DNA from: an uncultured Flavobacteriaceae bacterium
GTDB taxonomy: Bacteria > Bacteroidota > Bacteroidia > Flavobacteriales > Flavobacteriaceae
Length of the DNA: 64,000 nt
Reading direction: 5' to 3'
Assembly (NCBI GenBank): GCA_937929935.1
Contig: CALFUL010000004.1
Span: forward strand, 310,001-374,000
The translations under genes and the position numbers were made by a program. This document shows, piece by piece, positions 26,247 through 61,259 of this stretch; within the stretch, counting starts at the first letter, position 1, and every line of letters begins with the position of its first letter. The notes under the pieces are model-generated. The model made no database searches. It was not told the origin of the DNA and saw only the letters and a list, made by a program, of their open reading frames with translations.

Positions 26247-26315
26247 TTGTTGTATATAATCACTAAATGTATATTTATTTATACTATTTTAATATTTTTT
26301 CATATATTTATACAT

Positions 26316-26600
26316 ATGGATAATCAGATAACAATTACTACAGTCATAAATAAAATAGGACGAGTAATAGAATCGTATAGAGACAAAGAAGATTTAACTC
26401 AAGCTGAGTTAGGTAAAAGAATTAATGTTTCTCGCTTGACTATTATTAATATAGAGAAGGGCAAAGGGTCCAATACCCTAAATATTTTAAAAATTTTAAA
26501 ATACTTTGATTTATTACATGACTTAGACGTAAGTTTTAATCTAATGCTGGAAAAAGCCAATGAAGATGATGGTTTCAGTGAAATAAACTTATATGAATAG
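26316..26600 (+). CDS. hipB: HipB-like XRE family antitoxin
   Basis: 94 residues from the ATG at 26316; an open frame upstream from 26247 is only an AT-rich leader. The helix-turn-helix is complete: LTQAELGKRINVSRLTIINI, then EKGKGSNTLNILKILKYFDL. It represses the operon and neutralises the HipA kinase. The last bases overlap the toxin gene by 8 bp, the usual coupling of a type II toxin-antitoxin pair. Two TATACTT palindromes lie upstream. Confidence 0.85.
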   Translation: MDNQITITTVINKIGRVIESYRDKEDLTQAELGKRINVSRLTIINIEKGKGSNTLNILKILKYFDLLHDLDVSFNLMLEKANEDDGFSEINLYE

Positions 26601-27870
26601 CAAATTAGATAAGATAAAAGTTAGAATATTTGGAGAAGAAGTAGGCATTTTAGCCTATAATTCTATTAAAGCAGAAAGCTATTTTCAGTATAACAAAGTC
26701 TTTCTGGAACATAAACGTTATACCAATATTCTTCCATTCCTTATTAAACGTGTTTCCCAGACTCAAATATTTCGAAACTACAAAGAACACACATTTAGAG
26801 GATTACCTCCAATGATAGCTGATTCACTTCCAGACGATTTTGGAAATCAAGTTTTTAACGAGTGGATAAAATCCAAAGACATAAAAAAACATAAATTATC
26901 TCCAATCTACCAACTGGCCTATCTATCAAATAGAGGCATGGGTGCATTAGAATATTTTCCTGGAAAGTCATTGCCAAAAGCAGGAAAAATAAATTTGGAC
27001 TCCATTACTGATATATTAAGAAAAGTACTAGATGTAAAAAAGAACCATAAAGAATTAGAGCTATCAGATTTAGCACTTTTAAACATTTTTAAACTTGGTT
27101 CATCGCCAGGTGGAGCTCGCCCTAAAGTTATTGTGTCTGAGCATAAAAAGAGTAAAGAATTGATTCCTGGAGATGTGGAATATAGCAATGATTATAATCA
27201 TTATTTAGTCAAATTGAATATGAACAATGATGATGGTTATTCAAGAGAATTGATTGAGTATGGGTACTACAAGCTTGCTTTACTAGCTGGTTTAGATATG
27301 ATGCATTGTGAAATGATAGATAACAAACATTTTGCGACCATAAGATACGATCGTTTAAATGGAGAAAAGATTCATGTCCTTACGGCCACAGGAATTAGTG
27401 GTTATAACTTTCAAGACCCAGCTGTTTCTACTTATGAAAATGTATTTGAAATTGCCAATAACTTAAATCTTCCTTCGGGAGATATTGATGCATTATTCAG
27501 GAGAATGGTATTTAATTATGTTTTTCATAATGTGGATGATCATCTTAAAAATCATTCTTTCATTTATGAAAAGGATAATGACCGTTGGCGAATTTCCCCC
27601 TCATATGATATAAATTATTCTCTAAATGCGCTTAGAAAATGGCCAAATGCACCACATGTGCTTAGTTTAAATAATAAGAATACTCAAATAGATACTTCCG
27701 ATCTATTAACTATTGCTAAGACCTACGCTGTAAAAAGTCCTGAAAAAGTAATAATTGAAGTCTGTAAAGCCATATCTCATTGGGAAACTATTGCAACAGA
27801 ATTGAAGATTCCTGAAAGAGTTTATAATTCAATAAAGGAAGATTTTACAGATTATTCAAATATGTTCTGA
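26593..27870 (+). CDS. hipA: HipA family serine/threonine kinase toxin
   Basis: 425 residues, full length. Residues 1-125 are the N-terminal HipA subdomain (VRIFGEEVGILAYN, then PPMIADSLPDDFG). The kinase part has the serine loop KLGSSPGGARPK (169-178), catalytic Asp315 in NVDDHLKN and the metal-binding Asp339 in SYDINYS. HipA phosphorylates a translation factor (glutamyl-tRNA synthetase in E. coli) and causes growth arrest. The motifs look intact, so it is probably active. A second, split HipA lies at 56.9 kb. Confidence 0.88.
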   Translation: MNSKLDKIKVRIFGEEVGILAYNSIKAESYFQYNKVFLEHKRYTNILPFLIKRVSQTQIFRNYKEHTFRGLPPMIADSLPDDFGNQVFNEWIKSKDIKKHKLSPIYQLAYLSNRGMGALEYFPGKSLPKAGKINLDSITDILRKVLDVKKNHKELELSDLALLNIFKLGSSPGGARPKVIVSEHKKSKELIPGDVEYSNDYNHYLVKLNMNNDDGYSRELIEYGYYKLALLAGLDMMHCEMIDNKHFATIRYDRLNGEKIHVLTATGISGYNFQDPAVSTYENVFEIANNLNLPSGDIDALFRRMVFNYVFHNVDDHLKNHSFIYEKDNDRWRISPSYDINYSLNALRKWPNAPHVLSLNNKNTQIDTSDLLTIAKTYAVKSPEKVIIEVCKAISHWETIATELKIPERVYNSIKEDFTDYSNMF

Positions 27871-55839: not shown

Positions 55840-56682
55840 CTACGGTATCCATTTATCTTTACCAAAGTCTGGCTTTCTTTTTTCAAGAAAAGCATTTCTA
55901 CCTTCTTTAGCTTCATCAGTGCCATACGCTAGCCGTGTCGCTTCGCCGGCAAAGACTTGCTGCCCTACCATACCATCATCAGTTAAATTCATAGCGAATT
56001 TTAGCATTTTAATAGACGTTGGCGATTTCTCTAATACTTCTTGTGCCCATTGATAAGCAGTTGCTTCTAATTCTTCATGAGGTACAACAGCATTGACCAT
56101 ACCCATTTCATAAGCTTCTTGAGCAGAATAGTTTCTTCCTAAGAAAAAGATTTCACGGGCTTTCTTTTGTCCCACCATTTTTGCCAGATAAGCAGAACCA
56201 TAACCTCCATCAAAACTCGTAACATCGGCATCAGTTTGTTTGAAAATTGCATGTTCTTTGCTAGCCAAGGTCATATCACATACTACGTGTAAACTATGAC
56301 CGCCACCAACTGCCCAACCTGGTACCACTGCGATAACCGCTTTTGGCATAAAGCGAATTTGGCGTTGCACTTCTAATATATTTAAACGATGCATACCGTC
56401 TTCACCAACATAACCTTGCTCTCCCCTCGCCTTTTGATCACCGCCACTGCAGAATGAATAAATACCATCTTTAGTTGAAGGACCTTCAGCTGATAATAAT
56501 ACCACCCCAATTGAAGTGTCTTCTTGCGCATCATAAAAGGCTTTATACAATTCGCTTGTAGTTTTAGGTCTGAACGCATTACGTACGTTAGGTCTATTAA
56601 AAGCGATACGGGCTACGCCATCACTTTTTTGATAGGTAATATCTTCAAACGCTATAGCTGTTTTCCAGTTGGGTGATTTCAT
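55840..56682 (-). CDS. menB: 1,4-dihydroxy-2-naphthoyl-CoA synthase
   Basis: 280 residues, crotonase fold. EDITYQKSDGVARIAFNRPN, FCSGGDQKARGE (oxyanion loop), VPGWAVGGGHSLHVVCDMTL, and TDADVTSFDGGYGSAYLAKM (the MenB-specific DGGYGS) are clear. It closes the naphthoate ring in menaquinone synthesis. It stands alone here, without other men genes. The product is exceptionally well conserved. Confidence 0.95.
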   Translation of the reverse strand: MKSPNWKTAIAFEDITYQKSDGVARIAFNRPNVRNAFRPKTTSELYKAFYDAQEDTSIGVVLLSAEGPSTKDGIYSFCSGGDQKARGEQGYVGEDGMHRLNILEVQRQIRFMPKAVIAVVPGWAVGGGHSLHVVCDMTLASKEHAIFKQTDADVTSFDGGYGSAYLAKMVGQKKAREIFFLGRNYSAQEAYEMGMVNAVVPHEELEATAYQWAQEVLEKSPTSIKMLKFAMNLTDDGMVGQQVFAGEATRLAYGTDEAKEGRNAFLEKRKPDFGKDKWIP

Positions 56683-56850: not shown

Positions 56851-57867
56851 ATGGGTAAAAAAGCTAAGACTAGTTTTAAGCATGTTTCAAAACTTTCAAT
56901 CCTAAAACTAAGTGGTTTTCAACCAAAATTTTGCGATATTGAAACTGCTAAAAAACATAACTATTGTGTTATCAAAGGTGTTGCTGTCACGGGAGATGCG
57001 CCCAAAGATATTATTAGATATTATGAGTACGGAAATTCAAAAAAAGATAAAACAAAATCATGGCCCATTTACATTGCTAAGCTCGGGCATAAGTATTATC
57101 CTTTGGAATCAATAACTGAACAATTGATTTCTGATATAGGAAAATGGTATGGTTTTAACCTTGCTGAATCCAAAATTTGTTTAATCGGAGGGCAAATAAG
57201 ATTCCTTTCACAATATTTTTTAAAAGAGCATACTGATGAACTTTATCATGGAGCCGACATGTACGCTGGTTATTTAAGTGACAAACAATTTGTTGATGAT
57301 ATTGAATTAAAAAGAATGACACAAGATTTCTTTACTATCTCATTTACAAGGGAAGTACTTACTCATTTCTTCGAAGATTCATTTAATGAAATTTTCAAAT
57401 CATTTATGCTAATGTTATTTTTTGATGCATTGACAGGAAATAATGACAGACATATGTATAATTGGGGTATTATAAGAGATGTTTTTGGACAAAAAACAGC
57501 TGATTTTTCACCAATATATGATTCGGCACGGGGTTTGTTATGGAATGAAACTGAAAAAAAGATTGTAGAAATTTTGACAACTAAAAATAGAAAAGCGGAA
57601 TTCATAAAAAAATATTGTAATAACAGTCGTCCTAAAATTGGAATCGAAAATAAAAAAAGTGTTAATCATTTTGAATTAATTAGCTCGTACGATACTTACT
57701 ATAAAAATACTAAGTTTATAGAAGATCTTTTTCAGGAGAACAAAATTGATTATGTTATTAAAAAGTTAAATGAAAAATATAAGACTTTAATTAGTAAAGA
57801 AAGGCGTTTATTGATAACTGATATACTTAAATATAGATTTAAGGAATTAAAAAAAATTGTAACTTAG
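56851..57867 (+). CDS. HipT-like kinase: HipA kinase domain without N-terminal subdomain
   Basis: 338 residues. Instead of the usual HipA N-terminal domain it starts with a short helical lead. Kinase features: Lys77 in YIAKLG, catalytic Asp199 in TGNNDRHMYNWGI and metal-binding Asp224 in IYDSARG. The lost part (the HipA N-domain) seems to be encoded separately by the next gene, 7 bp downstream. This is the organisation of HipBST-type systems but with kinase first and no HipB in sight. The kinase is likely active on a tRNA synthetase or similar target; inference. Confidence 0.78.
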   Translation: MGKKAKTSFKHVSKLSILKLSGFQPKFCDIETAKKHNYCVIKGVAVTGDAPKDIIRYYEYGNSKKDKTKSWPIYIAKLGHKYYPLESITEQLISDIGKWYGFNLAESKICLIGGQIRFLSQYFLKEHTDELYHGADMYAGYLSDKQFVDDIELKRMTQDFFTISFTREVLTHFFEDSFNEIFKSFMLMLFFDALTGNNDRHMYNWGIIRDVFGQKTADFSPIYDSARGLLWNETEKKIVEILTTKNRKAEFIKKYCNNSRPKIGIENKKSVNHFELISSYDTYYKNTKFIEDLFQENKIDYVIKKLNEKYKTLISKERRLLITDILKYRFKELKKIVT

Positions 57868-57874
57868 GTAATTG

Positions 57875-58285
57875 ATGAAAGAAAAACTAAAAATACTATT
57901 AAAGAAGTTGACGCCATGGTCTGAAGATGCTGATTTTTTAGGTGAATTTGATTCTGAAAACCAAGAAGGAAAGTTCGAGCTACTCTTTAATGAGAAACTT
58001 ATAGGCACCTTAGAATTTAAACATAAGAAATGGATATTTGAATATTCAGATATTTTTAAAAAAGAGCAATTCGTACTTCCGCTAATTGATTTTCCCGATA
58101 TAGATAAAAAATATGAGTTCGACGATTTAATGCCTTTTTTTGCTTCACGAATTCCCAATTTGAATCAACCCTATCATGAAATGAAATTAGAAAAGCAAGA
58201 TGGGGATAAAACAAATTTGGTTTCTCTTCTAAAAATTTTCGGAGAGAAATCGATAAATAATCCATTTAAATTGAAGTATTTATAG
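57875..58285 (+). CDS. HipS-like protein: stand-alone HipA N-terminal domain
   Basis: 136 residues from the ATG at 57875 (a TTG stands directly before it). The pattern KFELLFNEKLIGTLEFKHKK, followed by FVLPLIDFPDID and the signature KYEFDDLMPFFASRIPN, is that of the HipA N-terminal subdomain, where the last block often reads FFxGLLPEG. The tail SLLKIFGEKSINNPFKLKY also fits. It should bind and control the kinase encoded just upstream. No other domain is present. Confidence 0.65.
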   Translation: MKEKLKILLKKLTPWSEDADFLGEFDSENQEGKFELLFNEKLIGTLEFKHKKWIFEYSDIFKKEQFVLPLIDFPDIDKKYEFDDLMPFFASRIPNLNQPYHEMKLEKQDGDKTNLVSLLKIFGEKSINNPFKLKYL

Positions 58286-59747: not shown

Positions 59748-61259
59748 CTACATTTTGGCAGCAAATTTCTGAGAAATACTTGAGCGCAATTTACGTTCAT
59801 AGTCTTCTTCAAGCCATTCTTTGTAGTTCTTAGTATTGTTCATGATGCAATATGAATATTGTTTGACACGAAACTGTATTTCGTCTTTCAACTTTTTAGC
59901 CAAAATACGAGCATCAAAAACATCTTCAGCATTTTCAACACAAATGTTCGCATGCTGTTCTATACTGCGTTCTAATACGGTTTTAGACTTTAAGCCTTGA
60001 GCAAATATCTTCTTATATTCTTCTTTAACATTGAACTCGATAGTTTCAGACTTAGAAAATTCTTGACGTAAGGCATCAGGCATTTCATAAATAAATTCAC
60101 GCTCAATATCTTCATCATTTTTGATGTTCTCAAGGTAAAAATCAGGAAAATGAAAAATTTCTTGCCAATCAATAGGTGCACTCCACATACCAAAGCGAGC
60201 CACATTGTTTCCTAAATCTATAACAGAGAATTCACTTTTCTTGGGCAATACCCTTGACCCCCTACCAATCATTTGAAAGTATAGTGTCAATGAGCGTGTA
60301 GCCCTATTAAGCATAATGGTTTCAACGGTAGGCTCATCAAAACCTGTGGTTAAAATACTAACTGATGTTAGAATGGCATCTGGTGTATTTGAAAACCAAT
60401 CTAAAATTTCACGCCTTTCTGTGGCGTTATTTTTATTATCTAAATGACGTACATTATAACCAGCCTTTTTAAAGGTTTCATACACATAAAGTGATGTGTT
60501 GATTCCGTTATTAAAAATCAAGGTTTTTGTGCCTTTGGCAACCTCATTATAGGCAGTTAATAACTTACCTAACATACTTTGATTGCCGTAAAGTTCATCA
60601 GACGACTTAACGGTATAATCGCCACTAATGCCTAATTTTAGGCTTTGTAGACTCACATCATAATTATACATATTCGCCTTGGCTAAAAACTTTTTCTTAA
60701 TCAAAGCTTCAATTGACTGACCAATAATCAACTTTTGATAGTTGTCTTTCATTGGTAGTTTTATATTTGAACTTAAGGGTGTTGCTGTAACCCCCAATAT
60801 GACTGAGTGTTCAAAATATTTGAATAATTTTCTAAAAGAATTATAGTGTGCTTCATCAATAATAACAAGACCTATATTATTGATTTCAACTTTTTCTTCT
60901 TGCAGCCTATTGTTCAAGGTTTCAACCATGGCCACAAAGCACATGAATTCATCTTGATCTTTTAATTCTTTAACTTCGCTATTGATAATCTTGTTCTTAA
61001 CCCCAAAACCAGTAAGCATTTTAGAGGTTTGCACACTTAACTCAATGCGATGGGTTAGCACCACTACTTTCTTTTGATTTTTTTCAATATAGCGTTTAGC
61101 AATCTCAGAAAACACAACCGTTTTACCACCACCAGTTGGCAATTGGTATAAAATATTAGCAGCTTCATCTGATTCTTCAAGACATTTGAAGATGGTATTT
61201 AAATCTTCTAATTGATAATCGTAAAGTTTCTTTTCAATTTTGTCTTTTTGTAACTCCAA
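59748..61259 (-). CDS. Superfamily 2 DEAH-box DNA helicase
   Basis: 503 residues. Domain 1: LYQLPTGGGKTVVFSEIAKR (Walker A), LTHRIELSVQTSK, VIIDEAHYNSF (DEAH), VTATPLSS (motif III). Domain 2: TLIFNNGINTSLYVYETFKK, AILTSVSILTTGFDEP and FQMIGRGSRVLPKK. It has the layout of type III restriction/UvrB-like translocases common in Flavobacteriia, with an unassigned C-terminal helical region. Role in DNA repair or defence is open. Confidence 0.85.
   Translation of the reverse strand: MELQKDKIEKKLYDYQLEDLNTIFKCLEESDEAANILYQLPTGGGKTVVFSEIAKRYIEKNQKKVVVLTHRIELSVQTSKMLTGFGVKNKIINSEVKELKDQDEFMCFVAMVETLNNRLQEEKVEINNIGLVIIDEAHYNSFRKLFKYFEHSVILGVTATPLSSNIKLPMKDNYQKLIIGQSIEALIKKKFLAKANMYNYDVSLQSLKLGISGDYTVKSSDELYGNQSMLGKLLTAYNEVAKGTKTLIFNNGINTSLYVYETFKKAGYNVRHLDNKNNATERREILDWFSNTPDAILTSVSILTTGFDEPTVETIMLNRATRSLTLYFQMIGRGSRVLPKKSEFSVIDLGNNVARFGMWSAPIDWQEIFHFPDFYLENIKNDEDIEREFIYEMPDALRQEFSKSETIEFNVKEEYKKIFAQGLKSKTVLERSIEQHANICVENAEDVFDARILAKKLKDEIQFRVKQYSYCIMNNTKNYKEWLEEDYERKLRSSISQKFAAKM

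What the first reader, a model, noticed from the sequence alone, without database searches (positions are those of the whole stretch)
56851..58285. Split HipA: kinase gene followed by a stand-alone N-domain gene, without HipB
The first gene has the HipA kinase motifs (GNNDRH, YDSARG) but no N-domain, and the second gene is the N-domain alone. In HipBST the N-domain-like HipS is the antitoxin and precedes the HipT kinase. Here the order is reversed and no XRE antitoxin is visible. A full hipBA also lies 30 kb away.
Basis: partly seen in the sequence, partly recalled or inferred. Interest (0 to 1): 0.6.

Follow-up and report, generated by a model that had tools for sequence, protein, structure and literature searches.

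The report
Split HipA kinase with downstream partner
Two neighbouring bacterial genes encode the two halves of a HipA-type kinase, the kinase first and its probable restraining partner second; this layout was described before, and the pair belongs to a separate branch whose partner protein lacks the DNA-binding part of its nearest relatives.

Summary
A 338-aa HipA-type kinase without N-subdomain-1 (56851-57867) is followed after 7 bp by a 136-aa protein with the HipS/HipA N-domain fold (57875-58285; first 19 Foldseek matches). No HTH gene adjoins; an ordinary hipBA lies 29 kb away. The pairing is conserved: 17 of 18 related kinase loci found have the second gene directly downstream; the exception is a kinase fragment. 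The layout is in print: hipIN and hipJS (PMC8262856); hipIN pairs match PADLOC's phage-defence candidate PDC-M03. The window pair fits neither cleanly: its kinases form their own clade on the HipI/HipM/CtkA-like side, and its second protein, closest by profile to HipN, lacks HIRAN (0 of 17, against 17 of 19 HipN). HipJ sequences could not be read, so hipJS membership stays open. Two relatives have an upstream XRE gene, two follow type IIG restriction genes, and four congeners lack the pair at the matching site. Best reading: a mobile kinase-antitoxin pair, perhaps anti-phage. Binding, inhibition and toxicity are inferred. New variant of a known kind.

The parts
56851..57867 (+). HipA-type kinase without N-subdomain-1 (338 aa)
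   Evidence: Pfam HipA_C; PADLOC PDC-M03A E 8.6e-33; AF2 pLDDT 85.5, pTM 0.86; CtkA Z 25.4, Legionella HipT Z 17.7, HipA Z 17.1
56986..57006 (+). Gly-rich loop, residues 46-52 VTGDAPK, aligned with HipT ITGVQPK and HipA GGARPK
   Evidence: alignment; G48, A50, P51, K52 invariant in 13 rows
57436..57468 (+). catalytic loop GNNDRHMYNWG, residues 196-206
   Evidence: DRH as in the HipI, HipM and CtkA-like rows, against DMH in HipT and DDH in HipA rows
57517..57531 (+). metal-binding motif YDSAR, residues 223-227
57875..58285 (+). stand-alone HipS-like protein (136 aa), likely antitoxin
   Evidence: Pfam Couple_hipA; PDC-M03B E 3.9e-10 over residues 43-112 only; AF2 pLDDT 83.7; Legionella HipS Z 12.7
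57875..57967 (+). N-terminal stretch of the second protein (residues 1-31), predicted helix 3-12 at low confidence; KLTPW in the nearest relatives, looser farther out
   Evidence: no counterpart in the HipN and HipS rows aligned, except that the HipS ORF of L035 opens early
57968..58282 (+). HipS-like domain (residues 32-136), no HIRAN domain after it
   Evidence: HIRAN in 0 of 17 second proteins; PF08797 finds nothing in the window's genome

Best explanation
The two genes are a mobile, toxin-antitoxin-like kinase module of the hipIN/hipJS kind. Gene 1 is a Ser/Thr kinase of the HipA superfamily, with its catalytic residues intact, that lacks N-subdomain-1; gene 2 is that subdomain as a separate protein. 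Most likely the second protein sits on the N-lobe of the kinase next to its Gly-rich loop, as HipS does on HipT, and holds the kinase inactive; loss or displacement of the second protein, for instance during phage infection, frees the kinase to phosphorylate a cellular target and stop growth. Shown here: gene order, predicted folds, conserved catalytic motifs, conserved pairing, and absence of the pair at this site in congeners. Inferred: binding, inhibition, toxicity, target and the phage trigger.
For: 17 of 18 kinase loci found have the second gene directly downstream on the same strand; the exception L056 is a 258-aa fragment without the Gly-rich loop and lysine, so no complete kinase was seen without the partner. 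K77, E90, D199, H201, N204 and D224 are invariant in 13 kinases. Folds: second protein = HipS/HipA N-domain; kinase = HipA core. In HipBST the HipS protein is the antitoxin and acts at the Gly-rich loop / ATP site (PMC10627512, PMC9325769; passages). PDC-M03A and PDC-M03B match both proteins; three hipIN pairs match the same models, while the one HipBST HipS tried matches no PDC-M03B model. Defence genes beside relatives: type IIG restriction genes overlapping the kinase start by 4 bp in L048 and L050, a Drt2-type reverse transcriptase beside L006, PDC-S56 directly upstream in L072, PDC-M48B about 2 kb from L007. Mobility: the glycosyltransferase lies directly beside the menB-like gene without the pair in 4 of 12 congeners with that gene; the kinase is absent from the 13 other same-genus genomes searched; GC 28.4% against 34.9% for the window; two copies on viral contigs.
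Against: No experiment. The two HipS residues that act on HipT in E. coli (Glu63, Trp65; PEGW) are not conserved: 14 of 17 rows have P-x-x-x-QP there, the other three differ again, so the HipS mechanism cannot be copied over as it stands. Legionella HipS has Ile at position 65 and still inhibits, so this is not fatal. The complex itself was not modelled. The HipA-S150-like place (G-3) holds no conserved Ser; a Ser/Thr at G-1 occurs in 9 of 13 kinases. Of 16 loci with at least one neighbour scanned against PADLOC, 11 gave no specific defence hit.
Confidence: 0.66

Rival explanations
1. The second protein is a necessary subunit rather than an inhibitor: kinase and N-domain together rebuild a working HipA, as N-subdomain-1 does within one chain in HipA.
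For: The two models together cover HipA almost end to end; in HipA the same domain belongs to the toxin; the HipS residues Glu63/Trp65 are missing; an XRE gene that could be the real antitoxin lies upstream in L007 and L008.
Against: The stand-alone N-domains tested in the papers seen (HipS of E. coli O127 and Legionella) are antitoxins (PMC10627512, PMC9325769; passages); 13 of 15 loci with readable upstream DNA, the window included, have no XRE candidate directly upstream.
Confidence: 0.2
2. A broken hipIN module that lost its HIRAN half and is decaying without function.
For: The second protein is closest by profile to HipN and lacks HIRAN; the kinase frame is broken in L009 (near its start), L010 and L055.
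Against: All 17 second proteins lack HIRAN, yet keep 129-136 aa and 14 invariant columns; the kinases are their own clade. A recent decay would not give this.
Confidence: 0.05
3. A secreted or host-acting kinase like CtkA, its nearest solved structure, with the second protein doing something else.
For: CtkA is the best PDB match by profile (E 1.3e-12) and by fold (Z 25.4).
Against: Conserved partner gene; defence genes beside some relatives; the plasmid kinases L044 and L047 (called CtkA-like by me) do not group with this family, and no ORF in those two loci matches the second-protein profile. Secretion was not tested, and CtkA itself is not in the tree.
Confidence: 0.05

Closest known systems
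hipJS (Gerdes et al. 2021, PMC8262856; passages read)
   Same: Short kinase without N-subdomain-1, downstream gene for a HipS-only protein, no HipB.
   Different: The paper's HipS of hipJS branches with HipBST HipS and HipA; here the second protein scores nearer to HipN and has an N-terminal stretch. Whether the kinases are HipJ could not be tested.
hipIN, whose pairs match PADLOC PDC-M03A/B
   Same: Kinase-first order; both window proteins match PDC-M03 models; closest HipS-like domain by profile.
   Different: HIRAN in 0 of 17 second proteins against 17 of 19 HipN; 129-136 aa against 216-260 aa; kinase in a separate clade.
HipBST (E. coli O127, Legionella)
   Same: Kinase split from a HipS-fold protein.
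   Different: There: hipB, hipS, hipT order and HipS Glu63/Trp65 (E. coli); here kinase first, other residues, and a kinase on the other side of the tree from HipT.
CtkA (PDB 3AKJ/3AKK/3AKL)
   Same: Nearest solved kinase by fold and profile.
   Different: The window kinase is about 27 residues longer at the N-terminus and has a conserved partner gene.
hipBA
   Same: Together the two proteins cover HipA.
   Different: Two genes, no HTH antitoxin in the window.

Membership tests
hipJS | short kinase lacking N-subdomain-1 with the core motifs | tested here: met
   (338 aa; the paper gives 279-321 aa on average for HipG/I/J/M, so slightly longer)
hipJS | downstream gene for a HipS-only putative antitoxin, no HipB | tested here: met
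   for the window; relatives L007 and L008 do have an upstream XRE gene
hipJS | kinase falls in the HipJ subclade of clade XI | not testable with these tools
   HipJ sequences are in a supplement that could not be read; only the HipI/HipM/CtkA-like side was shown (100/99)
hipJS | second protein branches with HipBST HipS and HipA N-subdomain-1 | tested here: inconclusive
   trees unresolved (holding second proteins with HipN against HipS plus HipA is not rejected, AU p 0.30); profile scores lean to HipN: 12 of 19 HipN, 1 of 5 HipS, 0 of 3 HipA at E < 0.001
hipIN / PDC-M03 | second protein has HipS-like plus HIRAN domain | tested here: not met
   Pfam HIRAN in 0 of 17 second proteins, in 17 of 19 HipN run the same way; 0 matches of PF08797 in the window's genome
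hipIN / PDC-M03 | kinase is HipI | tested here: inconclusive
   PDC-M03A matches, but 13 family kinases are one clade apart from 10 HipI rows; HipT of L018 also matches PDC-M03A weakly (E 1.4e-9)
HipBST | gene order hipB, hipS, hipT | tested here: not met
HipBST | HipS fold of the stand-alone protein | tested here: met
HipBST | kinase of the HipT clade | tested here: not met
   HipT plus HipA rows are split from this family at 100/99
Toxin-antitoxin module | kinase toxic alone and neutralised by partner | not testable with these tools
   needs expression assays

The most novel reading that the evidence does not exclude
A HIRAN-free branch of the PDC-M03/hipIN defence modules in which the second protein's N-terminal helix takes the sensor role proposed for HIRAN elsewhere, and which in some bacteria is coupled in one operon to a type IIG restriction enzyme as a back-up that arrests the cell when restriction fails.
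Probability: 0.13. Interest if true: 0.65.

Novelty: new variant of a known kind. Interest (0 to 1): 0.33.

Why it matters
Gerdes et al. list no experimentally analysed module for clade XI (hipIN, hipJS and others; 2021), and the paper searches made here showed none since in their listings; preprints were not held. A compact pair without HTH and without HIRAN is a simple form for asking whether a bare HipS-fold protein suffices to restrain such a kinase, and the loci with type IIG restriction genes offer a direct test of a role in phage defence.

Tried and rejected
Rejected: chance adjacency (17 of 18 loci keep the pair); SGFQPK at residues 21-26 as the Gly-rich loop (a first guess by eye; the alignment puts it at VTGDAPK 46-52). 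Led nowhere: plasmids searched with the window's own proteins (no match); the viral scan with alignment A2 (none; A9 found two); N-domain trees (unresolved). The promoter and terminator scan was no better than shuffles and the repeats were weak. Paper searches: PDC-M03 names 0 papers; CtkA with HipA 0; hipJ/hipJS/hipIN as words 16 papers, 15 listed, of which only PMC8262856 is relevant. PADLOC hits to neighbours that look like UvrD, ClpB, DEAD-box, GlgB, RelA/SpoT and DprA proteins were judged generic by recall of those families and not counted; the ATPase beside L008 has only a partial Ppl match and was not counted.

Results against the HipN lean of the second protein: 7 of 19 HipN score worse than E 0.001, all seven from genomes of the window's own phylum, and the HipBST HipS of L018 scores above them; in the reverse search the HipN and HipS profiles hit L073's second protein about equally (E 2.2e-6 and 5.2e-6) and only the HipS profile hit L072's; in the free trees the second proteins are not even one clade.

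Rows dropped before counts: L010, L055 (frameshifted kinases) and L056 (fragment) are not in the kinase alignment or tree; L009 enters after a probable frameshift near its start; L049's kinase start is unsettled; L072 and L073 were found after the kinase tree and are not in it. L011 and L051 (contig ends) and L056 are left out of the XRE count. Neighbours scanned with PADLOC were chosen, mostly the adjacent large ORFs; none was scanned for L051 and L056. The genome search scored at most five first-look candidates per genome, so copies may be missed.

Full report
What is there. Two same-strand genes lie at 56851-57867 and 57875-58285, 7 bp apart. The first encodes a 338-aa protein matching Pfam HipA_C (E 5.2e-9), the second a 136-aa protein matching Couple_hipA, the HipA N-terminal domain (E 1.6e-7). 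On the left lies a divergent gene at 55840-56682 (menB-like; name recalled from the sequence, from no call), on the right a glycosyltransferase. No HTH gene is beside the pair. A separate hipBA lies at 26247-27870. The genome has four HipA_C hits and four Couple_hipA hits; apart from the split pair these are three full HipA proteins, each with a short upstream ORF that looks like an HTH protein (Pfam-checked only for the copy in the window).

Folds. AlphaFold2 with 15 family members models the second protein at pLDDT 83.7, with 90 residues at 90 or more, nearly all after residue 30. Foldseek's first 19 PDB matches are HipS, HI_0666 or HipA entries (the entries titled 'MDT protein' are HipA by recall); VIA-align gives Legionella HipS Z 12.7 (99 residues, 2.1 A) and HipA residues 2-106 Z 11.6. 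The kinase model (13 rows, pLDDT 85.5, pTM 0.86) matches CtkA Z 25.4, Legionella HipT Z 17.7 and HipA Z 17.1, the last from HipA residue 118 on. So the two proteins are complementary pieces of a HipA.

Motifs. The Gly-rich loop is VTGDAPK (46-52), aligned with HipT ITGVQPK and HipA GGARPK; the catalytic loop is GNNDRHMYNWG; the metal motif YDSAR. DRH is shared with the HipI, HipM and CtkA-like rows and differs from HipT (DMH) and HipA (DDH). A Ser/Thr precedes the loop's Gly in 9 of 13 kinases.

Conservation of the pair. Related kinases came from one scan of genome contigs (6 loci), a sample of 395 genomes of the phylum (3 beyond the window's own), one of 395 of the class (6 beyond its own; the samples overlap in part) and viral contigs (2): 18 loci with the window. 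Weaker hits looked mainly like HipI or HipT kinases and were used as references. None was found in the 38 other genomes, 13 of them of the same genus. 17 of 18 loci have a 129-136 aa HipS-like gene directly downstream, gap -8 to +25 bp. The exception, L056, is a kinase fragment. The kinase frame is broken in L009 (near the start), L010 and L055; the second gene is open in all three. Pfam finds Couple_hipA in 17 of 17 and HIRAN in 0 of 17 second proteins; of 19 HipN references, 17 show HIRAN and all are 216-260 aa.

Phylogeny. In a tree of 34 kinases the 13 family members are one side of a branch (100/99), on the HipI/HipM/CtkA-like side and apart from HipT and HipA (100/99); where they join within that side is open. 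N-domain trees are unresolved and do not even hold the second proteins together. Profiles lean to HipN: hhalign probability 98.4 against 11 HipN, 36.2 against 5 HipS, 4.7 against 3 HipA N-domains, and with more rows 98.7 (19 HipN), 92.4 and 10.3; at E < 0.001, 12 of 19 HipN and 1 of 5 HipS. All three second proteins tried (window, L050, L072) match PDC-M03B, while the one HipBST HipS tried (L018) does not. The HipS set is small, seven HipN of the window's own phylum score worse than E 0.001, and the reverse search is about even, so this is a lean, not a proof.

Mobility. In 4 of 12 same-genus genomes with the menB-like gene (L060, L061, L068, L069) the glycosyltransferase lies directly beside it without the pair; in the other 8 the right flank did not match or the contig ended. 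GC of the pair is 28.4%, reached by 1.1% of the overlapping 1435-bp windows of the 64 kb.

Defence context. PADLOC PDC-M03A matches the kinase (E 8.6e-33), PDC-M03B the second protein over residues 43-112 (E 3.9e-10) of a 245-position model. Three hipIN pairs (L016, L021, L032) match both models, so PDC-M03 is hipIN by content. PMC11706625 (passages) spells PDC as phage defense candidate and says that HIRAN/HipA gene pairs were predicted by others to be phage defence. Of 16 loci with at least one neighbour scanned, five have a specific defence hit: L048 and L050 (type IIG restriction gene overlapping the kinase start by 4 bp; in L048 only an ORF of 651 aa, matching the C-terminal part of the model, lies on the contig piece), L006 (Drt2-type reverse transcriptase), L072 (PDC-S56 directly upstream) and L007 (PDC-M48B, about 2 kb off). 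The neighbours were chosen and no background rate was measured, so this is suggestive only. L007 and L008 have an XRE gene directly upstream.

Mechanism. In HipBST the HipS protein, not HipB, is the antitoxin; E. coli HipS wedges Trp65 beside the Gly-rich loop (PMC10627512, passages), Legionella HipS shifts the P-loop and blocks ATP (PMC9325769, passages). The window protein has the fold but PNLNQP in the place of PEGW, so if it inhibits it does so by other contacts. The inferred course is: complex inactive; partner lost or displaced; kinase free; growth arrest. Binding, inhibition, toxicity, target and trigger are all untested.

Known or new. Gerdes et al. (PMC8262856; abstract, section 4 and passages read) describe hipIN (HipS-like plus HIRAN) and hipJS (HipS only), both downstream of the kinase and without HipB, and find it tempting to speculate that hipJS arose from hipIN by loss of HIRAN. 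The window pair has the hipJS layout with a second protein nearer to HipN. Without HipJ sequences I cannot say whether it is a hipJS member or a parallel HIRAN-less branch; either way it is a variant of a described kind.

Noticed in passing
L048:66-3441 and L050:5483-10344: The kinase start overlaps by 4 bp the end of a type IIG restriction-methyltransferase gene (Eco57I/TaqI_C type and MmeI type), as if one operon.
   Followed up: partly
L007:5669-5929 and L008:5561-5824: XRE/HTH genes directly upstream of the kinase, giving the order B-kinase-S.
   Followed up: partly
L010:6001-7016, L055:6980-7989, L009 near 4770: Kinase reading frame broken while the downstream HipS-like gene is open; assembly errors not excluded.
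   Followed up: no
L072:2713-4126 and L073:3926-5339: Nearly the same pair on two viral contigs with different left flanks, both followed by a RadC-like gene (name by eye).
   Followed up: no
window 59748-61259: ResIII/SWI2-SNF2-type helicase ORF two genes from the pair; matches several PADLOC helicase models in part, none decisive.
   Followed up: partly
L046:2860-4602: Selenomonas plasmid with a HipM-like kinase followed by a recombinase-family gene, the hipMP layout.
   Followed up: no
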